64,000 nucleotides of DNA from Bacteroidota bacterium (GTDB lineage: Bacteria > Bacteroidota > Bacteroidia > UKL13-3): positions 142,825 to 206,824 of the forward strand of contig CANGVA010000003.1 of assembly GCA_947457395.1 (NCBI GenBank), given 5' to 3'. The position numbers were made by a program, and so were the translations under genes. Within the stretch, counting starts at the first letter, position 1; each line of letters opens with the position of its first letter. Of this stretch, positions 42,000-58,241 are shown in pieces. Below the pieces are notes generated by a model that was not told the DNA's origin, made no database searches, and saw nothing but the letters and a program-made list of their open reading frames with translations.

Positions 42000-42035
42000 A
42001 AACCAGCAATTATTCAATAATCAGTTTGCTGGTTT
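42000..42035 (-). terminator. Hairpin spanning the stop codon of the giant gene
   Basis: On the minus strand AAACCAGCAA (42035-42026) pairs with TTGCTGGTTT (42009-42000), with the TAA stop at 42012-42010 in the loop. There is no T run after it, so termination activity is doubtful. Confidence 0.25.
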
Positions 42036-45000
42036 CCTGGGCATTTACCTTTACCAGATATACACCTGCTTTGAGTCCATACAAATCAATTGGCTTGCCC
42101 TGTTCAGGATTTTGTATGCTCAATACGCGTTTACCTGCTACATCAAAAATTTCAAGAAGCTTGATATTTCCATTATTAGCCATTGAAACAAATACTTCTG
42201 TAGTTGCCGGATTCGGATACAGGCTGATACCTGATTTGTTTTTACCCAAACTATACCAATCACGCAGGGAAATGCTCACTACATTGCTGGTTTGACTTTC
42301 ACCGGAGAAATCCAACTGCCTTAAGCGGTAATACAATACATCAGCCTGTTTGTTGTTTGCTTCTTTTACTGCGGCCTCATCCAGGTATGCGTAGCTAATC
42401 AAGGAATTGCTGTTGCCGGCACCTTTTAGTGTGCTTATGCCTTCAAAACTTTCTCCGTCAAACGAGCGCTCAACCACAAATGCAGCATTGTTCTTTTCGT
42501 TTGCAGTTAACCAGTTTAGTGACACGTCATCTGTTTGATTAACCCTTGTAGCCGTAAAACTTATTAACTCTACAGGTAGGGCCGACTGGTTAATGATGAT
42601 AAGCTGGAAACGGTTGCCTGATGATGAAGTGTTTGATGTAATCTGGAACGTATACACACCATTGCTTCTAAGATCAGTTGTTTGAGAAGTAAATAAATCT
42701 CTTAACAATACTGCTTTGAATGCAGGGATATTATTTAAGCCACCTACTTGGAGGCGATATGTTCCCTGAGGGGCATTGGCAAATAGGATAAACGTATCAG
42801 CAATATTGGTTAATGGTGGAACACGATTTATCTGCACCGGTGTGCCACTTATTTGATAGCCAAAATTAATATCGGGGTTTGGATACTTGCGTGCATCTTC
42901 TGCTCCGGAGTAGCTCATATTTGCACCCGGTTTAATTTGCATAAATGCAATATCACTATTGATAGAATCCCTAATCATTTCAATAGTAATTTGACTGCCG
43001 GCCGATTTGAAATAACTTGTTGGTGTTGCGGAGGATTTACAGTTTTCATCAAAGGAGATGCTTGGTGAAGCCGCAACAGCCTGCACAAAAAATGCCTGAC
43101 CGGAAGCGATGAATGGATTGTTGCTATTGTTCAAATCGCCATCTGAAGCAACATATGCATTGGTAGCAGGATTAAATGCATAGTAAAATGTACTCAGGTT
43201 ATTTTTACTAACCAATCTCCAATCGATCTGAGATGGATAAGGATTACCAACCAGATTCCAGCCATCCTCTGTTGGTGCAGATGTATTGGTATAAGTTAGT
43301 GCCGGTGAAATAGCGCCACTTGCACCGCTGTTAATGTTTTGAATAAAATCTAGTGTTACTGCATTTTGTGCAGGGAATTGACCTTGTGTAAACCAAGCCG
43401 GTGAGGCAAGTGTGCGGTCGCCTCTGACAAACACAATAGCACCCTGACCCGCACCTAAACTGCTGCTTATATTCGTTACGGGTTTCCATCCGCGGCCACC
43501 TGTGGTTGATTCCTGGTAGGTATAAATAGTTGGACCATTATTGGGTGATGCATCAAAACCATTGGTTACACCACCGGATCCGGTAACAAAAATATCATCA
43601 ATTAACTGGCTGTAGGCAAAGTTTTGTGTATTGGGTGATACCATACGGAAACGTCTGGTTACTGCAGGAATAAATCGTTGTACGGCAACATTACCTGTGA
43701 TGCTGCCACCAAGTCTGCCCACACGAGCAGTTTGTGTAGCGTTGGAAATAAGCACCAGATTGTCACCTGTTGCCAGTGTTGCACCTGTATTGCTAACCGA
43801 AACAGAGTCTATAATATTTAAAGTATTGCCTAGGGTTATGGTTCCTGTTGTTTTTGATATAACAAGTCTTCTCAGGGTGTTTGTAACTCCTGTTGTAGTT
43901 TGATCCATTATTAAACTTCCGCCATTACCTGTTCCTCCAATAATGATTGAAGAGGTACCGGAACCTGTAAAGCTTCCGATAGAGCCGATTTTAATACCAT
44001 CATTTAGTGTTAAGTTAAAACCATTTATTACAATATTGGATCCTGTAGCAAGATCAATCTTGCCATTAAAGTTCATGTCTTGCAACAGAATGGTAGTGGT
44101 ATTTGGGGCAAAAGTTGCATCATCAGAGATGTTGGAAGGAATCACAAGCGGTGTGGAGCCTCCGGTTGGATTAACAGTATTTGCCGAGCCATCCCAGTTC
44201 CCATCATTATCTGATACCCAGTAATGCATATTACCATTGGATAGATTACGATATTCAATGCGTTTAATTCCATTGGCGTTTGCATTGGGTATAATGGTTC
44301 CCCATCTGCGTGCGGTGCCATTCACATTGTTTTCATAGAACGAAGCATAACCATTGGCTGCAGTATTGGCTATGCCATCACTTTCAACAACCGATGCAGC
44401 AATTGGCCTGCCTGCGCCTGTAACATTATCAAACAACACCACCATATTTTTCTCATTGGTTAATGAGCCACCATAAACGGCTGTTCCATCATTGGCGCCA
44501 CTGCCTGTATTCAGGTCAATTACTTTTGCAGCATTGGTACTGGTAATTCTGGTGCTTACAGTTGTGCCACCATTGCCATCATTCAGCATGATGCGCATCA
44601 GCACGGAGTTGGCAGCATCAAAGCGTGCATCACCTGTTGGCTCCAGCATAAACCATCCGGTGTAGGTTCCGTTTGCATCGGTGGTAAAGCTGCCAAATGA
44701 TGAACTTAAATCAGGCGCAGTTGATCTGGTTAGTGTTGAGGTTCCTGCATTTATGAATATCGGATTCCCTGCTCCATTACTGCTTGATGCATCTGCTGCC
44801 GTTACCGCTGCATTAAAATAACGATACGTGGTTGACGGGTAAAGATTGGTAAGTGTTGCGCGGAATATATGCGGAATACGGTTATCATTCGTACCGCTTT
44901 TGCCTTGCATAAACTGAGGCATATAAATTTCTGTTAAGGATGCTACGGTTTCGGCAAACACAAAATAACCCAGACCGGTAAGTGTGGATGAAGTGATGCT

Positions 45001-48000
45001 ATTACCGTCAGGGAAACCTGTGCTCACAGCGGCATAAGTACCTGTGAGGGTAGTAGCGTTATTTGCCAGTCGGTTCAATGTGCCGATGGCACTTTCGGTT
45101 GCCCTTACCGAAGTATTAATAAAATTACTTGTACCGCTGCTGATGCTAACATCCCAATAACGGTTGGTATTAATTGAACTCAATCCTGCACCGGCACTAC
45201 CACCTGTTGCTGCATCAAATACTTCGGCTCTGATAACCACAAAACCACCTGCATTTGTAGTTGGATTTACCAAGGCAAAAGGAGTATAGGCAGCTTTGCC
45301 CAACGGGAACAAATAGGTAGAACCACTTGCAAGGTTTGCAGGCAATGTTAAGGCCACAGGCCCGCTCACATAACCTGAGGTACGGCTAACAGCACTTGTA
45401 TTGGTAGAACCTATGGTTAGCAGATTGGCTCCCATATTAAGCACACCTGCAGTAAGTGTTAGGGTTCCGTTAACGGTTAATGCCTGATCAGAAGTTAAAC
45501 CGGCACTATTATTTACAGTGAGGTTATTGATGTTTCCTGAGAAAGTAGAAGCAGGAATACTTTGAGCCGCAGACCCACCAAAGAGCACCGTAGCAGATGC
45601 ATTGCTTGCGTCAATGTTTCCCGCAGATCTAATAATGCTGCCATTTATACTCAATGTTCTTGCGCCAACTGTTAAAGTACCTGCTGTTAAGGTTAAATTA
45701 TTGGTGACTGTAATATTCTGTCCCAAACTAACACCTAAGTTATTATCTATAGTAAGATTATAGAATGCCTGACCCGCAGTGATGCTTTGAGCTGAACTGC
45801 CATTCAAAATTACAGTACTGGTACCTGTTGTTAAAGTACCACTTGAAGAAAGATTGCCATTAACTGTTAATGTATTATTGCCTAAGTCTAATGTTGCACC
45901 GCTTAAAATGGATACATTATTTACAGAAGCAGGGGCACTGCTAATCGCAGGCTGATTTGCAAAACAAGTGGATGAAGGAATAAATATATTAGCCGCTGAA
46001 GGTGCTGCTGTGGCAACTGAATAAGACGATGGGCCATTATAAATTAACCAATTATTTGCAGTATTAAAATTAATTGACTGTCCTTGCCATATATAGTCAC
46101 CTGTGGTTGCTGATATTGAAGTTAAACAAGTTGGTAAGGTATGCACTACACAAACAGATACGTTCCCGTTGGCTGCACCTACACCTGAATGATAAACCCT
46201 GAAATAGTAAGTTGTGTTGGTCGCCAACGCTGCTGCATTAATGGTTTCTGTTCCTCCGTTTCCTGTAGCATTCACACAGTTCACACTTGTCAGACTGCCA
46301 ACAGTTCCGCTGAAAAGTTGTAATACTGCATTGTATGTGCTCACTCCGGTTGCTGAAATCGCATAGGTTGTGCCGGCAATGGAATTGGTGGTGAAACTGT
46401 ACCAGATGTCATCATCAGGAGTTCCGGGTGTACCTGCCGTGCACGCTGTGATACCGGATGTAGCAGTGGCTGATAAGGTAGCAGGAAGTGTTGATGAAGT
46501 GCCGGTGCAGGTAGTACCTGTAGTGAGCACAACTGCACCCGAAGGATTATCATTAGCCGGTGGTGGTATTACCTCACTCACACAAAGAGCAAACTCACCG
46601 TTGTTAGTTGATCCAGCAGCCGCATCATAAATTCTTAAATAATATAAACTTGAAGGATTTAATGCAACAGATGCTATCAACTCAGATAATCCGGCTGCAG
46701 CTGCGTTTACACAAGTTACAGGTGTAAGTGAGTTATCCAATAGTTGCACAACTGCATCATATCCTGCTGATGGGTCAACAGAAATACGATAGTTAGAGGC
46801 ACTGGTAGTAGTGAAGCTAAAAAATACATCGTCATCTGCATTGCCTGTTATAGCTGCAGAACAGGCAGTAATACCCGGTGTTGCAGTAGCGTTTTTGCTT
46901 GTGTAAATATTACCGCAATTACTAGTACATGGGGCATTGTTAACCGCAATACCAATAGATCCTGCCACTTCATTATTAGCAGGTGCAAATGTTGAACCGA
47001 AAAATGAGCCGGATGTGGGCGCGCTTCCCGCATTGAATGAAGTACTCGGCACAAAACGATATTGCGAGTTACATTGAAGAGAATAGCCTAAAGAATTTTG
47101 GGAGGTAGCATTAAAGAAAGTACTGTTCTCGGCCTGCAAAATAATGCGCTGGTCGGTTGAGGCAGTTGCAGGTGTAGGGCCATTCATGCCAACAGAGTAT
47201 GTCCATGTTTGTGTTGATGGGTTAGTAGCCCCATTAAACATTTGGAAGTTGCCGTAGTTAAAATCAATGCTGTTATCCGCCTCATGCAGTACCACTTGGA
47301 AATTAATATTTGGGTCACCATATTGAAATCTTTCCATTTCTGCCCATTCAATTACAATATCGGCTGTGCCTGAACCTAAGGTGCCAATTATTTGATAACG
47401 CATGCTCACATCCTTATTGTTGATGTCATCTCCTCGTATAACTAAATCATCCCAAAAAGGGGCAAGCACATTAAAATCAGTTGAACCTAAATTATTAGTC
47501 CATTGATTACTTGTGTTTGAAGTGTTAAATGTCATCCAACCATTACTTGTTGCAATGAATCCCGTAATAAGACTACCCCTATATCTAAACGTAGTGCTTG
47601 GTAAATTAATAAGGTTGGTTATTCCATCATCTGCGTCCGACAGTGATGTATAAGTACTACCGGTTGACATGATAGAATTATAGGTAATTGCAGTATTTCT
47701 GGTAACCGTATAATTGCATGCCTGTACCTGCACATTTACTGAGGCTGTAGTTGCAGTAGTAGGTCCGTTGGCGCAGGTTACCTGACATACATACCAAAGA
47801 TTAGATACCGAGGTAGAAGGTACTGTATAAGTAGCACCGGTAGCCCCGGAAATATTGCTGTAGGTTCCGTTTTGTGTAGTAGCAGATTGCCATTGGTAAG
47901 TAATACCTGTACCGGAAATGGTTCCGGTTATTTGCAGCAGTGCAGCAGCGCTATTACAAACAGTAGCATTGGTAGTTGTTGCAGTAAGTGCAGGGAAAGT

Positions 48001-51000
48001 GCTGCATGTATAACCTGGTATGCCGTCAAATTCATCAGCACCAATATCTGACGAAATTGCACCTCCATTGGTTGAACCCGTTGGACCAGGTCTTGTATGT
48101 CCATCTCTGTCGGTAGTTATCCCAGAAATATTTACACCACCTGACTCTAAAACAGATGATGTTGAGTTGTTAATATGAAGATCTAATGCAGCAGTATTGC
48201 CCGTAGCATTAATAAAGTTAGGATCGTTTGATACCGAACCTGCATCTTGTGAGGTTGCTGTTTGCCAGCCGTTCAAGGTTGTTACATCTGCCGCGTTATT
48301 TAGCGCAAGAAAATTACTTCCCGTCCAGTAATCGTTATTGTTAATGGTTAAACCTGTTAAACTAGCTATTCTAATGCTGTAATGTTTGCCTGTACCTGTT
48401 CCATTTGTACGCAAGTTTGTATAAATATTATTACGTATTATTCTTGTGCCAGATGTAGCAGCAGAATGTATGGCAAATGTGTTATTGGCTCCAGTTAGAA
48501 TACCTGCACCGCCAACATAAATGCTATTAAAATAAATACCATGGTTAGATGCCGCATTGGTTTGTCTGATGCCATTAATATTTAAATTGGCTGTTATATC
48601 ATTTCCTGATGCATCTATTCCCAACCTTACCATATTGTTATACACCAAAGCATTTCCGAGATCTGCAATCTCTATACCCGAAACAGTGGAACCTGCATTA
48701 AGAGAATGTATAAGATTTGAATTTATCTCATTGGTACCTGTGGTTGGTCCGTTATAATGTATACCAGTAACATTGCTGCCTGCAGTTGCATTGCTTAAGG
48801 AAAAAATAGTGTTTTGTGAAATTAACTGGCCTGAATTTGTTGCAGCCGTAAGTGAGATTCCAATTACAGATGTCAAACTTGCAGTTCCTGTGTTTGCTCC
48901 TGAATTATTTAGGTTGCGCACTGTATTTCCTGTAGCAGAAAATACACCTCCTGATGATCCAGGCAAAGACAATCCAACTACCTGAGCACTTGAACCAGTG
49001 CTTGAATTTGTGAGGTTGGCAATAGTATTAGCAGAAATATTATTTATTAAAGATGTAGAAGCAGAAAAAATCCCAAATAAAGAAGAATTGGTGGAATTAG
49101 ATAGACTGGATGCTACTGTAGTACTACCAATAGTATTATTACTAATGGTATAACTGGTTGAGGCACCTTGTACAGAAATTCCTCTTAAATTGAGTGCACC
49201 GGTAGAAGAGTTTGAAACTGTGATGCCTCCAATAAGATTGTTAGAAATATTTATTGCACCTGGGGTGCCAGTGCCTGCTAATATGCCTGAAAAAATTGCG
49301 GCAATTGAAGTTGTACTTTGAGTAAATGTAATACTACCGGCAGATGATTGGCTGCCTATGGTATTTCCGGTTATATTTCCGCAATTAAATGACCCTGTTA
49401 AAAGCGAAATTGCAGATTGCACTGTTGATGCACTAGCAGTTGTAACTGATATATTTCTGATGGTATTGTTTTGTAATGAAGTTGCAGCTGAATTACCTAC
49501 TGAAAGTTGAATAGCTCTGAAGACCAATGTGGCTGTTGTATTTAATGTCATTGGAGTACCAGCGCAAAGAGGTTGACTTCCTCCAATAAAATTATCATTA
49601 ATTACAAAATTATTCCCCGATGAATTATTAATTAAAATAGCATTCAGCGTTACGCCAGTGCCAAATGTGGTTCTGTTCACAGTTTGGTAAAAACTGTTAT
49701 TTGTAATATTCCAATCGCTGTTTCCACCTGAAATATTGATACCACATATTTGGGTAGTGACAGAGTTATTGTAAAAATCATAAATATTATTATTAGAAAT
49801 AATATTGGCATTGTTATTTGCTGCTGAGGTGCCTGTTGAGCCAGCTGCATATATGGCATTGGTAGGTGTAAAACTTATAGGGTCAAAAGCAAAAATATTG
49901 CAATATTCAATGGTGTTGTTATCATTACCATTGGTTCCGGTTGTGTTTGAGAACACAATAGTACCGGAGGTTGTGCCTGTATTCGCACTTTCGATTAATA
50001 AATACCTAAGTGCATTGTTTGATGACTCGTTTTGATAATTAACTGCATAACCGCTCGTAGAGGAATTTTCAATATTTAACATTCTGCTTGTACCTGCGCC
50101 ACCCGGTCTGCCATCAATTATAAAGAAACTACCTTGATTGTGACTGATAGTACCTGTAGCATTATTACTTGTTATAATCAATGGTGTAGCAACAGTTGCA
50201 GCCGGTCTGATGGTAATGGTATTCGTACTGTTTGCACCAGAAACATTACCAAGTGTTAAAGGAAAGATTTCACCTGTACTAATATAATCGGGTTGAAGCT
50301 CAAGTATGGTTGGTTGGGTAATGCCGCATCCATTTAAAACCAATAACGCATCGGTAAGGCTTGAATAATCAGCGCCTGTTTGGCCAATGGTAACGGTAGC
50401 ATTAAGTGTTGGGCAAGGATTGGTAGATTGACTTCCAAATAAAGGGCTGTTTGTATTGTATATTGGACCATTCAAGCAAATGGTATCATTAAATGAGTAA
50501 ACGTAATAGTCATATGTGGTATTTGGTGCCAAACCAGTAACTACTCTGCTGGTGTTTGAACCAGATAAAACTACTGTACCGCTTCCTAATGATGCTCCTA
50601 ATGCATAAGTTGTACTATTTGAAGGGTTGGTTGGCGTTGCTGCATTAGGATAGCGAACTACAAGATACCTAATACCTGTAACTGAAACTGGAGTAAAACT
50701 AATGGTCATTTGGCCCGTGCCAATAGCGCTAAATAAAATAGAAGTTGGTTGTGCAACAGGAGCTGTACAATTTTCGATTTCTATAGCACCAATTGTAGGT
50801 GTGGTATTATTTCTTGTGGTCCCTCTATAGTCTGTGGTAATACCTGCAATTGGCGTACCTGCATTTGCAAGTGGTGTCCCATTGGTAGGAACTAAATTGG
50901 TATTTGATGTGAAAAGTGGATTGCTGCTGATTGAATTGGCATCTTGTGAGGTTGTTGTTTGCCAGTTAGATAATGCAACTTGAGCAGTACCTGCCCAACC

Positions 51001-54000
51001 ACCAGTGGCACCAACACCTGCTGTTGTCCCTCCGCCTGATACAAACAGGTTGTTGTAATTTGATGTTAAATTAGTATAGGTTGAATTATTTAAAGCAATG
51101 GATCTATTTGGACCTGAGCCTGTACTACCGGTACTTGCAAGTATATTATTTCTAATATCAATAACCGGATTGTCACTAACAGCCAAGGCTATGTTTGGTC
51201 CACTTCCTCCTGTTAAAGTTGCTGACATTGATACAGAGTTATGGTATACCCTTGTAGTTGATCCGCTGCCACCAGCAACCATTATACCAATACCACAATC
51301 TCCAAATGTTCCATTTGCTGCAACATCGAATATAATATTATTAGCAATTAAATTAATACCTGAAGTAGAAGGCGAAATAATGATACCACCCGCTCCGTAA
51401 GTGCTTGCTGCTCTAATGGAACCAATCACATTAGCTGATATAGTGGCATTGGTAACTTCATTTCCTGTAGATGGGGCTGTGCTAGTAATAGAGGTTAAAG
51501 CACCTAAATTAATTGCCCATGCGTAACTAGCACTAACACCTGAGATATTTGAGATATTGTTATTGCTAATTGTTATATTGTTTTCAAATCCAACTAATAT
51601 ACCAGATTTTGATACTTGATTTGGGGAAGCTGTGTTAATTAGATTTTGGGTAATCAGGTTCCCTGTATTTTTAGTCCCTGCTGAATTACCTTGTGAGTAA
51701 ATTGCATATTGTACCTTGCTGATATTATTATTCTGAAATGTGTTGTTATTATTGTTTGTACCCAACGAAGTTGCGCTGATGGTTGAACTTCCGCTACCAA
51801 TACCCATTAATGTAGTTGTTGGAGTATTACCCACTATATTACAGTTTATAATGTTGTTTGATGTTGCACCATTTGTTCCACTAGATTGCAGCCAAATAAC
51901 AGCAGAAGATGTTCCAGTACTTGTATTTGTTATGGTTAAGTTTCTTGATGTGGTGCCGTTGTTACTTCCATCAATGGTAATAAAATCTGCACCGTTTAGT
52001 GTAATGAGTGCGGTTGTACTTGATCCTGTTAACGTAGCTGTAGTTTGCGGTTTTATAGTTAGCGTAGCATTCGGTGTGCAACCATAAGATATTTGATTAA
52101 GCGCCACAGCACCTGTTTCTGTAACAGAAGCATCAATAATATTTGCTACCGTATTACCACTTAAACCGCCTGCATTAATGGCGGCAAATAGCCCACCCGT
52201 ACCGGTAATACTGGCATATGTTCCAGTTGCGCCAATGGTAACGCTAGTTGGTATGGCATTTCCAATATTATATGAGTTAATGGTTCCAGTAAGTGGGAAT
52301 GAGGCAGAGGTTAGAGCAACGCTTGCAGGAGCAGAAGTAAAGGTTCCACTATTTATTCCTACATTTGGGCTACTGGCATTGTCTTGTACTACTACAAAAT
52401 ATTGGATTACATCACCTGCAGCCATCGCTGACTGAAGTATACTTCCATCTATTGTGAAAGAGAATGGAGAAGAACTACTTGTAGATTCCACAAATTTCCA
52501 ACCATTGTCTGCAGAGGTATTCCCTGTATAAGTGTTATCATCGGCTGATTTTTTATAGTACAAACGAGGAGCTGAACCTGCAGAAATATTAACACCACTT
52601 GCATCTGTGATGGTAGCACTTAAAGTTGGGGCATTTGTACAAAGGGTATTGGGTATGGCGGTATAAGAGATAGATGGCCCGGTAAGGTCTGCTGCAACCC
52701 CATTCAGTTCCCAAGCTCCAATATCTGGAGTTGATACGTTACGTGTTGCTCCTAAAAAATCAGTAGTAAAACCGGAAATAGCAGCTCCACCACTTTCGGC
52801 CTGTGTTGCGATGCTTAAATCGTATTTTAAAAAGTCGGCACTTGATCCTGTTGTGCTCTGGAAGGTAATAGCTTCACTTGCTGACGAAGCATCTCGTGAA
52901 CCAATTGTTCCTGCAGTGAAAACACCTGACTTATAGGCACTCATAGTTTGTGCTGAACTTGTCCCATCAGAATAGATTAAATTGCTTGCACCCGGTGCAC
53001 CCGCATAGAAAAGGTTGTTATTAGACGTAGAAGCATAGTTGGCAAGGGTACTTGCTAACCCGGAACTTCTTCTATAAGCAACAGTTAAACCAGTACCGGC
53101 AGGGGTTGAGGTATTGACAATGATATTGTTTCTTAAATTTAATACCGCAGTAGTTGCCGTTGAACTTGCTGTATGGAAAATACCCGTAGTACCGAAATTT
53201 GCACCCGTTGATGAGGCGTTAATATTAACTGTATTGTAATAAATATTATACGTAGAATTAGTTGTAGTTGAGGTAATAGAAATACCCCTGATAGCGTCTG
53301 TGCTGGTAGAAGCGCCTGCCGAAAGATTTCCAATTAAGTTATTATTGCAATTTACAGTTGTTCCACCAGAAATCAAAATACCGTTTACACCCGGTGTAGT
53401 ATTGAAAGCACCAGTAGTTGATAAGTCATAAATATTGTTTCTGTTTACAGTTGCAGTTGTTCCACCGGTAACCATTATACCATTTGTTACGCCTGAAGTT
53501 GTACCTACACAAGTCAGAGTGTTGATGGTATTCTGGAAAATATTCGCTGTAGTTGCTGATGAGGTAATACCAACTACAGTAGCAGTCGTACTGGTAGAAG
53601 TTAAATTATTTATAGTATTAAGTGAAATATTTGTAGTTGTACTCGCAGAAGCATTTGATATGCCTGTATTGTTTCCAACTGTTGTACTATTGTTAGTGAT
53701 AATATTAGAGTTAACATTTAAAGTTGTAGCAGTACTTGAAGATCCAATAGTTAAAGCCGTAATTGCTGCTCCCCAACTTATATTGGTTATTGTATTTGAA
53801 CTAACCGAACTAGTCGTACCTCCAAAAAAGTTTACAGTCATTGGATTAATAGTTCCCGTTCCACCACTTATGTTATTAAAGGTATTTCCAGTAATAGTTT
53901 TGGTTGGAGACCCTCCATCAGTATTGTTAATTCCAACGAACCCTGTTGCGCCCGTTAATGTGATATTAGAAAAATTATTATTTTGGAAAGTAATAATTGA

Positions 54001-56250
54001 ACCAGTAACCGATGAAGCATTTGAACTAAAAAAAGTTACAGTTCCGCCTGCTCCTGATTTTGTAAATGCAGTAACAATAGAGTTTCCACTAATAGTCTGA
54101 GTTCCTCCTGATGTTGGGACAGCAATTGCATTACTTACAAATGTGATACTTCCTGTAGTCGTAGCTGAAATATTAGTGAAAGTATTATTATTGATAGTAG
54201 TATTTAAATGAGCCATAGAAGAACTGATATACGTATGTGCTCCAGTTGGAGAAGCAACCGTATGACCCATTGAGCTAAAATTGTTGGAGCTAATAGTTAA
54301 TGAACTCGAAGCAGAACCTGTTGAAGATTCAACAATTATTCCGTTTACTGTACCAGTCGTAATTCCACTTTGAACAGAAATACTATTATTACTAATCGTA
54401 CAAGTTACTGCAGTAGTTGGTGCAGCTGAAAAACTTGGTACATAGATTGCTCTTTGTGATGATGTAACTGTATTACCACCTGCGGAACTTGTTACTGTAT
54501 TATAAGAAATATTGTATCCCGCGCAGTTACGAACCAAAATACCATTCAAGGTTCCTGAAACGTTAGCATATGCTGAGAAAGAACCCGTAGTACCCCAATT
54601 GGTAATTGAGTTGCCTTGGCCGGCAGATGTTCCACCAATGTCAAGACCGGTGTTTAAATCCGCAGCAGCAGTAGGGCCAGTTACATTGATACCCTGATTA
54701 ACGTTACTTATTGTATTACCATAAATTTTCAAACCACTGTTTCCACCAGCCGTTGTTGTGGCAGAAGCAGTAGTAGTAGTTACTGCAGTAGCTGAGTGTG
54801 TTGAGTTGGAATAAATACCAAAAGTATTTTGGTAGGTGCGGTTCAGGGTAATTGTATTATTTTGAATGGTACAATTTTGTGCACCATTGGTTGTGGTGGC
54901 ATACAGCAATGCAACACCCCATTCCGTCATATTATTGGATGCGGCTGTAGTTGTAGTATTTAAAGAATTTTCTTGCATGGTAAAACCATTGATGGTTACC
55001 CAGTCAGCTCCAATTAACTTAAAAATAGCATCATTCAGGTTGCCTGAGTTGTGAGTTGTAGGTGCAGTAAAAGTTGGATTAGTACCTGTACCCGATTTCT
55101 GAAAAATGATGGCATTGCTACTACCAGTTCCTGTTGCCGTTATTGAAAACCCACCTGCTGGGGCTGTTTCTGTATAACCTGAAGGCACAAAGCAGGTAAT
55201 ATTGCCACCTGTTACTGTATGTGCGGTGCCGGTATTAATTGCTGTAATGGCCGCGGCAAGTGTTGCATACGTTGCAGAAGGAGCACCTGTTCCGGTGCTG
55301 GAGGTAACCCTGATGGGGTTAGCTGCATAAGAATAATTATTCCCACTATTATCAGCATATCTCAATGCCTCATAGGCTATGTCTGCTGCATTACCTGTTG
55401 TAATAGCAGATAAGGTCATTGTTGAACTAAAAATATAGTAAAACACATTGGTGCCTGCTGCTTGTGCAGGTATGGTTGCAGCATACGTTGTGCCACTAAC
55501 TTGGGACGCTTCTACAACTGTATTGGTAGTTGAAAAGTCGTTTGTAGTTGTGCGATAGCGCACAAAAAATCTTTCTTGTGTAGATGGGGTTCCGCTTAGT
55601 GTAAAACTTACAACGGCAGAACGGTCGCTTTGCATTGCCAGTTGTGTTGCCGGGGTATGGGTGATATTAACAGGTGCATTTGTAGTATAACCAACATAAA
55701 AGCCAGTTGAAGAATAACCTGCATCTTTAAGCACAAAAGTATAATGGCCCGCAGTGCTCATATTAAGTCCCATGTCTTGACCACCAGTAGTTACATATTG
55801 AACTCCATTAACCGCGTTAAGGGACCCACTCCCAACACCTGCAAAATTCCATTTATTGTTAAATTGACCAGCGGGTGGCCCTGAGGTAAAAATGAATCCA
55901 TTTCCGTTTCCACCGGCCATATTCAATGGTGTTACGTTGCCACCCGTTGCTTGTACATTAATCGTTGTAGCCCATTGACCCCTTCCATCACCCGGGTTGG
56001 TGGCAGTGGTAGATACTTTTCTGTATTGCAGTACGCGGTAATCACCTGCTGCAAGGTTAGTGGGTTGGCTGTAACCGTTTATTTGACCTACCCAATTCAC
56101 ACCCTCACCGCTAAAAATATTTTGTGCAGAAACAACCTGACTTGCAAATAGAATGACTAGCATTGCTAGTTTTGGTAGACCTTTACCTAAACGAGTAGCG
56201 AAAAAAACTTGCGCCTGAATGTTACAGGCTATTGTATATACTTTCTTCAT
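42010..56250 (-). CDS. Giant T9SS-secreted beta-helix protein
   Basis: A single frame of 4,746 residues, from ATG 56250 to the stop at 42010. The leader is long (MKKVYTIACNIQAQVFF, cleavage near SQVVSAQ). Beta-helix-type repeats rich in N, T, S and G cover about residues 320-1180, 1330-1820 and 1945-2735. Three choice-of-anchor-type ends (DIGAWELNG, TIGAIEIEN, DIGADEFDG) close them. A fibronectin-like part is at about 1828-1937, Ig-like at 2740-2850, and two PPC-like copies at about 3100-3370 (each with DDDxxxSFTT). Filamentous beta repeats follow. The end (LYPNPATTEVFV and GVYLVKV) is a T9SS type A sorting domain. It is probably surface-exposed; its adhesive role is inference. ATG 56307 is a less likely start. 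Confidence 0.9.
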   Translation of the reverse strand: MKKVYTIACNIQAQVFFATRLGKGLPKLAMLVILFASQVVSAQNIFSGEGVNWVGQINGYSQPTNLAAGDYRVLQYRKVSTTATNPGDGRGQWATTINVQATGGNVTPLNMAGGNGNGFIFTSGPPAGQFNNKWNFAGVGSGSLNAVNGVQYVTTGGQDMGLNMSTAGHYTFVLKDAGYSSTGFYVGYTTNAPVNITHTPATQLAMQSDRSAVVSFTLSGTPSTQERFFVRYRTTTNDFSTTNTVVEASQVSGTTYAATIPAQAAGTNVFYYIFSSTMTLSAITTGNAADIAYEALRYADNSGNNYSYAANPIRVTSSTGTGAPSATYATLAAAITAINTGTAHTVTGGNITCFVPSGYTETAPAGGFSITATGTGSSNAIIFQKSGTGTNPTFTAPTTHNSGNLNDAIFKLIGADWVTINGFTMQENSLNTTTTAASNNMTEWGVALLYATTTNGAQNCTIQNNTITLNRTYQNTFGIYSNSTHSATAVTTTTASATTTAGGNSGLKIYGNTISNVNQGINVTGPTAAADLNTGLDIGGTSAGQGNSITNWGTTGSFSAYANVSGTLNGILVRNCAGYNISYNTVTSSAGGNTVTSSQRAIYVPSFSAAPTTAVTCTISNNSISVQSGITTGTVNGIIVESSTGSASSSLTISSNNFSSMGHTVASPTGAHTYISSSMAHLNTTINNNTFTNISATTTGSITFVSNAIAVPTSGGTQTISGNSIVTAFTKSGAGGTVTFFSSNASSVTGSIITFQNNNFSNITLTGATGFVGINNTDGGSPTKTITGNTFNNISGGTGTINPMTVNFFGGTTSSVSSNTITNISWGAAITALTIGSSSTATTLNVNSNIITNNSTTVGNNTGISNASASTTTNISLNTINNLTSTSTTATVVGITSSATTANIFQNTINTLTCVGTTSGVTNGIMVTGGTTATVNRNNIYDLSTTGAFNTTPGVNGILISGGTTVNCNNNLIGNLSAGASTSTDAIRGISITSTTTNSTYNIYYNTVNINASSTGANFGTTGIFHTASSTATTAVLNLRNNIIVNTSTPAGTGLTVAYRRSSGLASTLANYASTSNNNLFYAGAPGASNLIYSDGTSSAQTMSAYKSGVFTAGTIGSRDASSASEAITFQSTTGSSADFLKYDLSIATQAESGGAAISGFTTDFLGATRNVSTPDIGAWELNGVAADLTGPSISYTAIPNTLCTNAPTLSATITDASGVNISAGSAPRLYYKKSADDNTYTGNTSADNGWKFVESTSSSSPFSFTIDGSILQSAMAAGDVIQYFVVVQDNASSPNVGINSGTFTSAPASVALTSASFPLTGTINSYNIGNAIPTSVTIGATGTYASITGTGGLFAAINAGGLSGNTVANIIDASVTETGAVALNQISYGCTPNATLTIKPQTTATLTGSSTTALITLNGADFITIDGSNNGTTSRNLTITNTSTGTSSAVIWLQSSGTNGATSNNIINCNIVGNTPTTTLMGIGSGSSTISATSLGTNNNNNTFQNNNISKVQYAIYSQGNSAGTKNTGNLITQNLINTASPNQVSKSGILVGFENNITISNNNISNISGVSASYAWAINLGALTSITSTAPSTGNEVTNATISANVIGSIRAASTYGAGGIIISPSTSGINLIANNIIFDVAANGTFGDCGIGIMVAGGSGSTTRVYHNSVSMSATLTGGSGPNIALAVSDNPVIDIRNNILASTGSTGSGPNRSIALNNSTYTNLTSNYNNLFVSGGGTTAGVGATGGWAGTAQVALSNWQTTTSQDANSISSNPLFTSNTNLVPTNGTPLANAGTPIAGITTDYRGTTRNNTTPTIGAIEIENCTAPVAQPTSILFSAIGTGQMTISFTPVSVTGIRYLVVRYPNAATPTNPSNSTTYALGASLGSGTVVLSGSNTSRVVTGLAPNTTYDYYVYSFNDTICLNGPIYNTNSPLFGSQSTNPCPTLNATVTIGQTGADYSSLTDALLVLNGCGITQPTILELQPDYISTGEIFPLTLGNVSGANSTNTITIRPAATVATPLIITSNNATGTISHNQGSFFIIDGRPGGAGTSRMLNIENSSTSGYAVNYQNESSNNALRYLLIESANTGTTSGTIVFSNTTGTNGNDNNTIEYCNIFAFDPISFTPTNAIYAAGSTGTSAANNNANIISNNNIYDFYNNSVTTQICGINISGGNSDWNITNNSFYQTVNRTTFGTGVTLNAILINNSSGNNFVINDNFIGGSQPLCAGTPMTLNTTATLVFRAIQLSVGNSAATSLQNNTIRNISVTTASASTVQSAISLLTGSFNCGNITGNTIGSQSSAGSITFTQSTTSIAAIFSGILAGTGTPGAINISNNLIGGITVSNSSTGALNLRGISVQGASTSYTISNNTIGSTTVASSLSNSTNSSLFGIFSASTSLINNISANTIANLTNSSTGSSAQVVGLSLPGSSGGVFSATGNTVRNLNNSGANTGTASLTSVIGISLTAATNSGQLISQNTIFSLSNATAGSNVTGIHYNGPTTGTNEINSNLIHSLNAGSTVSGIEIADLGNALVYNNMVRLGIDASGNDITANLNINGIRQTNAASNHGIYFNSIYVGGAGILTGANNTFAIHSAATSGTRIIRNNIYTNLRTNGTGTGKHYSIRIASLTGLTINNNDYWTGSNFLALNNAADVTTLNGWQTATSQDAGSVSNDPNFINATGNTAALDLHINNSTSSVLESGGVNISGITTDRDGHTRPGPTGSTNGGAISSDIGADEFDGIPGYTCSTFPALTATTTNATVCNSAAALLQITGTISGTGITYQWQSATTQNGTYSNISGATGATYTVPSTSVSNLWYVCQVTCANGPTTATTASVNVQVQACNYTVTRNTAITYNSIMSTGSTYTSLSDADDGITNLINLPSTTFRYRGSLITGFIATSNGWMTFNTSNTSNQWTNNLGSTDFNVLAPFWDDLVIRGDDINNKDVSMRYQIIGTLGSGTADIVIEWAEMERFQYGDPNINFQVVLHEADNSIDFNYGNFQMFNGATNPSTQTWTYSVGMNGPTPATASTDQRIILQAENSTFFNATSQNSLGYSLQCNSQYRFVPSTSFNAGSAPTSGSFFGSTFAPANNEVAGSIGIAVNNAPCTSNCGNIYTSKNATATPGITACSAAITGNADDDVFFSFTTTSASNYRISVDPSAGYDAVVQLLDNSLTPVTCVNAAAAGLSELIASVALNPSSLYYLRIYDAAAGSTNNGEFALCVSEVIPPPANDNPSGAVVLTTGTTCTGTSSTLPATLSATATSGITACTAGTPGTPDDDIWYSFTTNSIAGTTYAISATGVSTYNAVLQLFSGTVGSLTSVNCVNATGNGGTETINAAALATNTTYYFRVYHSGVGAANGNVSVCVVHTLPTCLTSISATTGDYIWQGQSINFNTANNWLIYNGPSSYSVATAAPSAANIFIPSSTCFANQPAISSAPASVNNVSILSGATLDLGNNTLTVNGNLSSSGTLTTGTSTVILNGSSAQSITAGQAFYNLTIDNNLGVSLGQNITVTNNLTLTAGTLTVGARTLSINGSIIRSAGNIDASNASATVLFGGSAAQSIPASTFSGNINNLTVNNSAGLTSDQALTVNGTLTLTAGVLNMGANLLTIGSTNTSAVSRTSGYVSGPVALTLPANLASGSTYLFPLGKAAYTPFALVNPTTNAGGFVVIRAEVFDAATGGSAGAGLSSINTNRYWDVSISSGTSNFINTSVRATESAIGTLNRLANNATTLTGTYAAVSTGFPDGNSITSSTLTGLGYFVFAETVASLTEIYMPQFMQGKSGTNDNRIPHIFRATLTNLYPSTTYRYFNAAVTAADASSSNGAGNPIFINAGTSTLTRSTAPDLSSSFGSFTTDANGTYTGWFMLEPTGDARFDAANSVLMRIMLNDGNGGTTVSTRITSTNAAKVIDLNTGSGANDGTAVYGGSLTNEKNMVVLFDNVTGAGRPIAASVVESDGIANTAANGYASFYENNVNGTARRWGTIIPNANANGIKRIEYRNLSNGNMHYWVSDNDGNWDGSANTVNPTGGSTPLVIPSNISDDATFAPNTTTILLQDMNFNGKIDLATGSNIVINGFNLTLNDGIKIGSIGSFTGSGTSSIIIGGTGNGGSLIMDQTTTGVTNTLRRLVISKTTGTITLGNTLNIIDSVSVSNTGATLATGDNLVLISNATQTARVGRLGGSITGNVAVQRFIPAVTRRFRMVSPNTQNFAYSQLIDDIFVTGSGGVTNGFDASPNNGPTIYTYQESTTGGRGWKPVTNISSSLGAGQGAIVFVRGDRTLASPAWFTQGQFPAQNAVTLDFIQNINSGASGAISPALTYTNTSAPTEDGWNLVGNPYPSQIDWRLVSKNNLSTFYYAFNPATNAYVASDGDLNNSNNPFIASGQAFFVQAVAASPSISFDENCKSSATPTSYFKSAGSQITIEMIRDSINSDIAFMQIKPGANMSYSGAEDARKYPNPDINFGYQISGTPVQINRVPPLTNIADTFILFANAPQGTYRLQVGGLNNIPAFKAVLLRDLFTSQTTDLRSNGVYTFQITSNTSSSGNRFQLIIINQSALPVELISFTATRVNQTDDVSLNWLTANEKNNAAFVVERSFDGESFEGISTLKGAGNSNSLISYAYLDEAAVKEANNKQADVLYYRLRQLDFSGESQTSNVVSISLRDWYSLGKNKSGISLYPNPATTEVFVSMANNGNIKLLEIFDVAGKRVLSIQNPEQGKPIDLYGLKAGVYLVKVNAQETSKLIIE

Positions 56251-56432
56251 AGACTTGTATTGTTTTAAGTACAATTGAACATCAACTTTATGGATAAAAA
56301 ATGACAATAAGAAGCCCTTTTATGATAAAAGTCATTTTTTAATGTATTGAAGAAATCAATAACTATTGCAAAACCAATATTAATAGGTGTTTTACAGGCC
56401 ATAATCGCAGGTCATTTAAGGGAAATTTAAGC

Positions 56433-56498: not shown

Positions 56499-57470
56499 GT
56501 GGATTGGAAAAACATACATATAGATGCAACAACAACATTACTCCTGCAGCGTCTGGATGATAAACTGCAACACATTAAACAGGTAAGGCCTTTACCTGCT
56601 GCTGCCCTTGCACGCATTAAAGAAGGCCTATCGCTGGAGTGGACATACAATAGTAATAGCATAGAGGGTAATACCCTTACCCTGCAGGAAACCAAACTGG
56701 TATTGCAAGACGGGATGACGGTGAAAGGAAAATCCTTGCGAGAACATTTTGAAACCGTAAACCACCATGATGCCGTTGCATATATTGAATCTGTTGCACA
56801 AGCCGCTAAACCCATTGCAGAGTATGATGTGCTTCATACCCACGCTTTGGTATTAGATAAGATTGAAAAAGATTTTAGCGGGCGTTTTAGAAACGCTGGT
56901 GTGCGCATTACCGGTGCCAACTTTACACCACCCAATGCCCGCAAGGTTTATGATTTGGTGCATGAGCTGATGCATTGGGTAAATCAGGAATCAGGGTACC
57001 TGCATTGCCTGGTGCGTGCTACCGTTTTTCATCACCGCTTTGTTTGGATACATCCTTTTTTTGATGGCAATGGCCGCACCGTGCGCTTGCTGTTTAATCT
57101 GCTATTAATGAAGGAGGGTTATCCGCCTGCTATTATCCTTCGCAATGACCGTAAAAAATACTACGATGCACTGAACAAAGCCAATGCCGGTGATTATAGC
57201 AAATTGTTGCTGCTCACATGCCAGGCTATGGAGCGCAGCCTCGATATTTACCTAAGCAATCTGGATGATGATGCAGAGGATTATAAACCCATTACCTCCA
57301 TTGTTGAGGAAAGTGCAATGCCATACGGCTACGGCAAAGAATACATTAGCTTACTTGCCAGAAGAGGTGTGATTGATGCCTACAAAGAGGGGCGTGTTTG
57401 GTATACTACAGAGAAGGCGATTCATGCTTATGTGAAAGGAAGAAGGAGGAAGAGGAGATTGAACGGTTAG
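56499..57470 (+). CDS. Fic-family protein (class II, with inhibitory motif)
   Basis: A 323-residue protein of the Fic AMPylase type. The active site HPFFDGNGRTVR starts at H185, and the N-terminal inhibitory motif SNSIEGN (S52, E56, G57) marks it as class II. A C-terminal winged-helix-like part (about 265-310: SIVEESAMPYGYGKEYISLL) precedes a basic tail ending RRKRRLNG. Fic proteins mostly transfer AMP to target hydroxyls; the target is unknown here. The start is GTG 56499. The last codons and the TAG at 57468-57470 fall inside the octamer repeat array. Confidence 0.88.
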   Translation: MDWKNIHIDATTTLLLQRLDDKLQHIKQVRPLPAAALARIKEGLSLEWTYNSNSIEGNTLTLQETKLVLQDGMTVKGKSLREHFETVNHHDAVAYIESVAQAAKPIAEYDVLHTHALVLDKIEKDFSGRFRNAGVRITGANFTPPNARKVYDLVHELMHWVNQESGYLHCLVRATVFHHRFVWIHPFFDGNGRTVRLLFNLLLMKEGYPPAIILRNDRKKYYDALNKANAGDYSKLLLLTCQAMERSLDIYLSNLDDDAEDYKPITSIVEESAMPYGYGKEYISLLARRGVIDAYKEGRVWYTTEKAIHAYVKGRRRKRRLNG

Positions 57471-57608
57471 AAGGTTGGAAGATTAGAAGATTGAAAGATT
57501 GGGAGGTTGAAAGATTAGAAGATTGAAAGATTGGGAGGTTGAAAGATTAGAAGGTTGGAAGATTAGAAGATTGAAAGATTGGGAGGTTGAAAGATTAGAA
57601 GGTTGGAA
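57457..57608 (+). repeat. Degenerate octamer array, consensus GRTTRRRA
   Basis: Eighteen consecutive octamers from 57465 to 57608 all fit G-R-T-T-R-R-R-A without one slip; GATTGAAC at 57457-57464 is an imperfect nineteenth unit. With A=GATTAGAA, B=GATTGAAA, C=GATTGGGA, D=GGTTGAAA, E=GGTTGGAA and F=GGTTAGAA, the order is FE ABCD ABCD AE ABCD AE, so 32-base superunits recur. The strand is purine-rich. No CRISPR-like spacers are seen. The remaining bases to 57671 hold nothing recognised. Confidence 0.9.
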
Positions 57609-57671
57609 GATGGATGTTTGAAGTTGAGTTCTATGCAGGCAGAATGTATGGTGCATTACCTGTGAGTCTTT

Positions 57672-58241
57672 TTACAGATTTACCAGTTTAAACTCCAGCT
57701 TATCAGCCAGTGAGCGGTAGTAGGTTTTGATATGGTGCATCACACTGTCAATGTTTTTAAATTCCTGCAGCAAATCAATGAGCAGGATATCAAAAACGCA
57801 GCCTTCAACAAATTTTATTTCTTTGCCAAATCCGCAAACGCATAAAGCATTGGTTTTTCTAAGAAAGCGTTTAATATGCCTGCGATCGGTATTGAGCGTG
57901 TGGCAGGTGCCAAAATGAATGATTTTGTTGTGGCAGTTGGGTCCCAACATATCGGCCAGTTCATCCAACGTCACAATCTCTTTGCCCACCAGAATCTGAT
58001 TTGGCTTGCCATGAAATGCAATATATAATATGGAGTAATCCTTGTACCGTTTAAGACTCCATTGGTTGATATAGTATTGCAGGTTTTCTTTGGTGCCGCA
58101 GTGGCGGTGAATGTATTCAATCTGCCTGTTTTGTTTTAAAAACATCAGCACCGCCTGCACAGAGGTTTGATGCTTAAGGTTTTTACTCCAGTCGCCCTCC
58201 AGGCAAAATACTTCTTTGTTATATGTTTTGGCAAATTTCAA
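57672..58241 (-). CDS. Putative caspase/CHAT-like protein (DUF6642-like)
   Basis: A 189-residue protein that I do not recognise with certainty. The N-terminal VFCLEGDWSKNLK matches what I recall of DUF6642. A hydrophobic strand leads to LYIAFHGKP (H78-G79), and a second to IIHFGTCHTL (C113). A His-Gly after one strand and a Cys after the next is the layout of the caspase/CHAT fold, so a cysteine protease role is proposed. The start is TTG 58241; a TAG stop is directly upstream in frame. The gene is convergent with fic, with the array between. Confidence 0.55.
   Translation of the reverse strand: MKFAKTYNKEVFCLEGDWSKNLKHQTSVQAVLMFLKQNRQIEYIHRHCGTKENLQYYINQWSLKRYKDYSILYIAFHGKPNQILVGKEIVTLDELADMLGPNCHNKIIHFGTCHTLNTDRRHIKRFLRKTNALCVCGFGKEIKFVEGCVFDILLIDLLQEFKNIDSVMHHIKTYYRSLADKLEFKLVNL

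What the first reader, a model, noticed from the sequence alone, without database searches (positions are those of the whole stretch)
57457..57608. Eighteen-unit degenerate octamer array that supplies the fic stop codon
Every unit from 57465 to 57608 fits GRTTRRRA with no phase slip, though the R positions vary in six forms that recur in an ordered FE ABCD ABCD AE ABCD AE pattern. The array begins inside fic, and its first full unit GGTTAGAA carries the TAG. It therefore seems to have inserted or expanded into the gene's end, possibly replacing its original C-terminus. Conserved length with varying purines suggests selection on spacing, or repeated copying of 32-base superunits. The function is unknown; protein binding, phase variation or mobile-element remnants are possible.
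Basis: seen in the sequence. Interest (0 to 1): 0.65.

Follow-up and report, generated by a model that had tools for sequence, protein, structure and literature searches.

The report
Variable short-repeat array ending fic gene
A real run of 18 near-identical 8-letter DNA repeats sits just after a bacterial fic gene; it is one of several such unstable arrays in this genome and resembles known short-repeat arrays of other bacteria, and its supply of the gene's stop codon follows from the repeat's own letters and does not truncate the gene.

Summary
In detail: 18 perfect GRTTRRRA units at 57465-57608, order FEABCDABCDAEABCDAE, with the fic TAG in the first unit, far beyond chance. The array is not unique: this genome has at least three more octamer arrays plus heptamer arrays (RTTRGSK), and a sister species carries two at the same loci with changed unit counts. 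Octamer arrays occur sporadically in Bacteroidota, Chloroflexota, Cyanobacteria, Lentisphaerota and others. The fic C-terminus was not replaced: orthologues end at about the same length, and one relative has fic and the same convergent DUF6642 neighbour 6 bp apart without an array. Most unit forms hold a stop (T-R-R, positions 4-6), so a frame entering on the purine strand soon ends; pyrF here ends the same way. Best reading: an STRR-like degenerate VNTR grown by copying 32- and 48-bp blocks, with no demonstrated function. Two wider regularities emerged: arrays of one genome share unit sequences beyond GC effects, and the purine strand begins at the upstream gene's stop codon far more often than the pyrimidine strand does, a placement already published for Xanthomonas and Nostoc heptamers.

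The parts
56499..57470 (+). fic gene (Fic/DOC family), GTG start as called, 323 aa; its last codons and TAG stop lie in repeat sequence
   Evidence: ORF list; Pfam PF02661, E 1.4e-19; orthologues of about equal length
57457..57464 (+). imperfect leading unit GATTGAAC inside the coding end of fic
   Evidence: sequence, unit split
57465..57608 (+). 18-unit GRTTRRRA array, unit order FEABCDABCDAEABCDAE
57468..57470 (+). TAG stop codon of fic, at positions 4-6 of the first full unit GGTTAGAA
57513..57560 (+). first exact copy of the 48-bp superunit ABCDAE
   Evidence: unit order; period 48 in TRF
57561..57608 (+). second exact copy of the 48-bp superunit ABCDAE
   Evidence: unit order; period 48 in TRF
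57609..57671 (.). 63-bp non-repeat spacer between the array and the DUF6642 stop; single-copy in the genome, no inverted partner array
57672..58241 (-). convergent neighbour gene, DUF6642; in relative G015 it lies 6 bp from fic without an array
   Evidence: Pfam PF20347, E 8.3e-32

Best explanation
The feature is a degenerate short-unit tandem array (an octamer VNTR of the STRR-like kind) that grew in the convergent gap between fic and a DUF6642 gene. Shown: a relative has the same gene pair with a 6-bp gap and no array; the array contains exact block copies; orthologous arrays elsewhere differ by whole units between sister species. Inferred: growth by replication slippage or unequal recombination that copies blocks of one to six units, and seeding of new arrays from the unit set already present in the genome (template switching or gene conversion). 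The stop codon follows mechanically: GRT-TRR-RA holds T-R-R at positions 4-6, a stop in every form except TGG, and 8 is not a multiple of 3, so a frame that enters the array on the purine strand soon meets a stop. Fic is almost unaffected and no selected function need be assumed.
For: Other octamer arrays in the genome and in the sister species at the pyrF and polX-type loci with one-unit and many-unit differences. Site without array in G015, 6 bp against 201 bp. Fic orthologues of equal length. pyrF shows the same stop take-over without loss of C-terminus. Exact 48-bp copies. Heptamer arrays of the same style in the genome and class. Array edges mutate at all positions, with transitions favoured at most purine positions. 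Stops in all three frames of the purine strand. No RNA structure. Same kinds of repeats and the same placement described by Rehm 2015 (PMC4692102) and MacGregor 2015 (PMC4679880).
Against: Strain-level length variation at this locus was not observed. Within this array only A/G changes at four positions occur, fewer kinds than neutral mutation would suggest for several independent changes. The strand polarity at stop codons and the genome-specific unit sets are not predicted by plain slippage.
Confidence: 0.74

Rival explanations
1. The array is a functional 3'-end element: its unstructured transcript (purine on one strand, C- and U-rich and G-free on the other) acts in Rho-dependent termination, mRNA protection or as a back-up set of stop codons between convergent genes.
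For: Purine-sense arrays start at or contain stop codons far more often than pyrimidine-sense ones (34/52 vs 6/48; heptamers 10/17 vs 1/19). The minus-strand transcript is unstructured and free of G. Convergent gaps are slightly more frequent than divergent ones (19 vs 14).
Against: No orientation bias in tandem gaps (29 vs 24); arrays absent from fic orthologues; sporadic occurrence (10 of 395 genomes for octamers); unit counts change between sister species.
Confidence: 0.1
2. The array is a polar, actively propagated element: genome-specific units are copied to new gene ends by a dedicated or unrecognised DNA-synthesis process, and convergent inverted pairs are its full form.
For: Unit composition shared within genomes beyond GC (0.67 vs 1.66 +/- 0.15); inverted partners on the 3' side only (27 vs 2; strict 15 vs 1); 5' end of the purine strand close to gene ends.
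Against: No inverted partner in the window or in Bacteroidia heptamer arrays; no shared flanks or enzyme found; single-copy spacer; common descent of base composition or ordinary gene conversion could give shared units.
Confidence: 0.12
3. The array is a phase-variation (contingency) repeat that switches Fic by changes in unit number.
For: Unit number varies at orthologous arrays; the unit length is not a multiple of three.
Against: The array lies after the conserved part of fic; loss of any number of leading units gives a tail of 1-30 residues and does not truncate the Fic fold; it is not in a promoter or the 5' part of the gene.
Confidence: 0.03

Closest known systems
G-rich heptamer repeats GGGAATC (Xanthomonas) and GGGGA(C/T)T (Nostoc), Rehm et al. 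2015, PMC4692102; the Nostoc type resembles the tandem heptanucleotides (STRR) of Calothrix
   Same: Short intergenic tandem arrays, perfect or heterogeneous; dispersed in the genome; [quoted passage not shown] nearer the 5' neighbouring ORF; convergent inverted pairs in Xanthomonas.
   Different: Unit is 8 bp with TT in the middle and few G runs, so no G-quadruplex is expected (not tested); a handful of loci per genome instead of over a hundred; no inverted partner here.
TAACTGA heptamer direct repeats, Beggiatoaceae, Cyanobacteria and some Bacteroidetes, MacGregor 2015, PMC4679880
   Same: Short intergenic arrays of sporadic phyletic range; forward repeats give stop codons in all three frames and so end any ORF that enters them; long arrays in some Bacteroidetes absent at the same place in close relatives.
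   Different: A fixed 7-mer, mostly just upstream of start codons; GRTTRRRA is a degenerate 8-mer whose purine strand begins at stop codons.
Simple sequence repeats / VNTRs of contingency loci
   Same: Head-to-tail units, unit-wise indels between relatives.
   Different: Position after the stop region means unit number cannot switch the gene on or off.

Membership tests
STRR-like intergenic degenerate short-unit (7-8 bp) tandem arrays | Head-to-tail units of about 7-8 bp with limited degeneracy | tested here: met
   18 units of GRTTRRRA
STRR-like intergenic degenerate short-unit (7-8 bp) tandem arrays | Several dispersed, mainly intergenic loci in one genome | tested here: met
   at least four octamer loci and several heptamer loci in G000
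STRR-like intergenic degenerate short-unit (7-8 bp) tandem arrays | Sporadic presence, absent at the same place in relatives | tested here: met
   no array at fic in G002, G015, G010, G006; 10 of 395 genomes of the class
STRR-like intergenic degenerate short-unit (7-8 bp) tandem arrays | The classical STRR heptamer sequences of cyanobacteria | tested here: not met
   the window unit is an 8-mer of other sequence; only the neighbouring RTTRGSK heptamers of this genome resemble them
Phase-variable contingency SSR | Unit number changes alter frame or promoter of the gene | tested here: not met
   only the 1-30 residue tail changes
Phase-variable contingency SSR | Length polymorphism within a population or among strains | not testable with these tools
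   no second strain of this species was found in the collections used; only a sister species
Intrinsic terminator / structured RNA element | Stable RNA fold | tested here: not met
   z-scores 0.22 and 0.14
MITE or other transposable element remnant | Multi-copy flanks with terminal inverted repeats and target-site duplication | tested here: inconclusive
   the 3' spacer is single-copy and no inverted array lies beside it; terminal repeats and target duplications were not searched for
TAACTGA-type translational repeats | TAACTGA unit placed just upstream of start codons | tested here: not met
   other unit; the array follows the stop codon of fic

The most novel reading that the evidence does not exclude
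Purine-rich 7-8-mer degenerate arrays form a cross-phylum class of polar elements: the 5' end of the purine strand is anchored at gene ends, an inverted arm (when present) is on its 3' side, and each genome propagates its own unit set to new gene ends by an unrecognised copying process, for example template-switching synthesis primed by the purine strand.
Probability: 0.13. Interest if true: 0.66.

Novelty: new member of a known kind. Interest (0 to 1): 0.33.

Why it matters
It explains a puzzling stop codon: the array supplies it because of the repeat's own letters, without shortening the gene. It extends a poorly studied class of bacterial repeats, described in the papers found here mainly from cyanobacteria, Xanthomonas and Beggiatoaceae, to octamers in many phyla. 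The two regularities, unit sets private to each genome and purine strands that start at stop codons, are testable and not obviously explained by slippage alone.

Tried and rejected
(1) Rho-dependent terminator: in G000 the pyrimidine strand lies downstream of a gene at all four octamer loci (read), but the wider sample shows no bias in tandem gaps (29 vs 24). (2) Selection on an invariant G.TT...A frame: units at array edges change at all eight positions at similar rates (0.14-0.31 per unit) and interior off-pattern units include T>G and G>C; the strict pattern is partly imposed by the search. (3) Stop codon as nucleation seed: where a gene keeps its own stop next to the array, the stop is not in fixed register with the units. 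(4) RNA hairpin in the window array: none. (5) Hairpin with an inverted array: seen in Chloroflexota and others but absent here and in Bacteroidia heptamer arrays. (6) Polarity caused by transcription alone (R-loops past the stop): Rehm et al. report repeats nearer the 5' ORF whatever its orientation, which argues against it; my start-codon distances were inconclusive. (7) Literal unit strings in the literature: no bacterial paper found. (8) The reversed-pattern control of the genome search is not clean for GRTTRRRA, because arrays with G at position 6 and A at position 7 also match it.

Full report
OBSERVATION. The 18 octamers at 57465-57608 are exactly as described: all fit GRTTRRRA, in six forms ordered FEABCDABCDAEABCDAE. 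TRF finds the array at periods 16 and 48. Markov simulations of 64 kb never gave more than two in-phase units. The order is most simply explained by two block duplications (32 bp ABCD, then 48 bp ABCDAE) from about eight ancestral units, FE ABCD AE. That history is inference; the identity of the two 48-bp copies is seen directly.

WHAT IT DOES TO FIC. The gene is a Fic/DOC protein (PF02661). Four orthologues (61-76% identity over 319-321 of 323 residues) end at about the same place...YVKGRRRKRRLNG* here...YVKGRKRMRKTGS* in G002...YMSNRKRKH* in G015. Only the last few residues and the stop lie in repeat sequence. In G015 fic and the same convergent neighbour, DUF6642, are 6 bp apart with no array; here the gap is 201 bp. 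The array plus a single-copy 63-bp spacer therefore fills what is a 6-bp gap in that relative. The sister species G001 keeps DUF6642 but lacks this fic.

WHY THE ARRAY CARRIES THE STOP. Unit positions 4-6 are T-R-R, a stop in every form except TGG, and eight is not a multiple of three; the purine strand of this array has stops in all three frames. The fic frame entering the array ends after 1-30 residues, whichever number of leading units is lost. pyrF in the same genome and in G001 also takes its TAG from a first unit GATTAGAA, again without loss of C-terminus relative to 18 orthologues. In the wider sample 17 of 19 in-array stops sit at positions 4-6. MacGregor 2015 (PMC4679880) made the same point for TAACTGA repeats.

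GENOME AND RELATIVES. G000 has octamer arrays at pyrF (C3:44.5 kb), after a crotonase-like gene (C12:85.7 kb) and before a polX-like gene (C20:35.2 kb), plus two-unit fragments (the crotonase and polX names are by eye). In 864 kb of this genome examined with TRF only a few comparable regions appear. Heptamer arrays RTTRGSK, reminiscent of cyanobacterial STRRs, lie beside the polX octamers and at other sites. Between G000 and G001 (flanks 93-97.5% identical) the pyrF array differs by one exact unit and a few substitutions; the polX array has 16 perfect units against 5, and its adjacent heptamer tract is much longer in G001. Across 395 genomes of the class, 10 have four or more octamers in a row and 34 four or more heptamers. 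A scan of named genomes stopped at its limit with 116 stretches in Bacteroidota, Chloroflexota, Cyanobacteria, Lentisphaerota, Poribacteria and others. Viral contigs gave 11.

TWO REGULARITIES. (a) Arrays at different loci of one genome share unit composition: mean distance 0.67 against 1.66 +/- 0.15 when values are shuffled among genomes of similar GC. (b) Polarity: the purine strand starts within 10 bp of, or contains, the stop codon of the gene 5' of it in 34 of 52 cases, against 6 of 48 for the pyrimidine strand (p 5e-8). This holds with strict array borders (p 1e-4), with one array per genome (median p 2e-6), and in the independent heptamer sample (10 of 17 against 1 of 19, p 0.0008). Part of it is mechanical, because stop-rich purine arrays end ORFs while pyrimidine arrays are read through; genes that keep their own stop show it too (15 vs 2). 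Within convergent gaps alone the paired test is not significant (17 arrays, p 0.49). Inverted partner arrays, where present, are on the 3' side (27 vs 2 of 109; strict 15 vs 1). Rehm et al. 2015 describe the same placement, and convergent pairs in Xanthomonas, for G-rich heptamers. Limits: ORFs were called mechanically, several arrays come from the same MAGs, and these tests were devised after looking at the data; only the heptamer sample is a hold-out.

MECHANISM. Growth by copying of one- to six-unit blocks (slippage or unequal recombination) is supported by the exact superunits and unit-wise indels. Spread between loci of a genome is inferred from shared unit sets. No function is shown: no RNA structure, no orientation bias in tandem gaps, no conservation at the locus. 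What sets the polarity is open; a purely transcriptional cause is weakened by the published finding that repeats lie nearer the 5' ORF whatever its orientation.

VERDICT. A real but ordinary-in-kind feature: a new octamer member of the STRR-like class of dispersed degenerate short-unit arrays. Strain-level variability at this locus could not be tested, and the copy number in a draft assembly may be inexact.

Noticed in passing
L015:2324-3358 (G000:C3, about 43.3-44.4 kb): A reverse transcriptase gene (PF00078) lies convergent to pyrF on the far side of the pyrF octamer array, in G000 and G001; no link to the repeats was shown.
   Followed up: partly
L185:15631-16041 (G000:C3, about 35.6-36.0 kb): Composite repeat region: a 30-bp tandem repeat followed by 65- and 81-bp repeats that mix GATTAGAA-type units with GTTTGTT and GCGGGTTAATGATT words; its TAATAACAAACC word is shared with the pyrF array about 9 kb away.
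   Followed up: partly
L187:12077-12405 (G000:C3, about 72.1-72.4 kb): A 92-bp tandem repeat, 3.6 copies, 98% matches, whose unit holds a terminator-like AAAGCCC...GGGCTTTTTT.
   Followed up: no
G274: One genome of the class has 93 matches to four-unit RTTRGSK arrays, mostly ATTAGGT, far more than any other of 395 genomes: a good subject for studying spread.
   Followed up: no
L084, L087, L098, L114, L117, L149, L155: In Chloroflexota MAGs the octamer arrays come as convergent inverted pairs (GATTGAGA... loop ...TCTCAATC), a hairpin-capable form of the same repeat.
   Followed up: partly
window 42010-56307 (-): A 4765-residue ORF with long low-complexity, repetitive sequence and a C-terminal tail that looks by eye like a type IX secretion sorting domain.
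   Followed up: no
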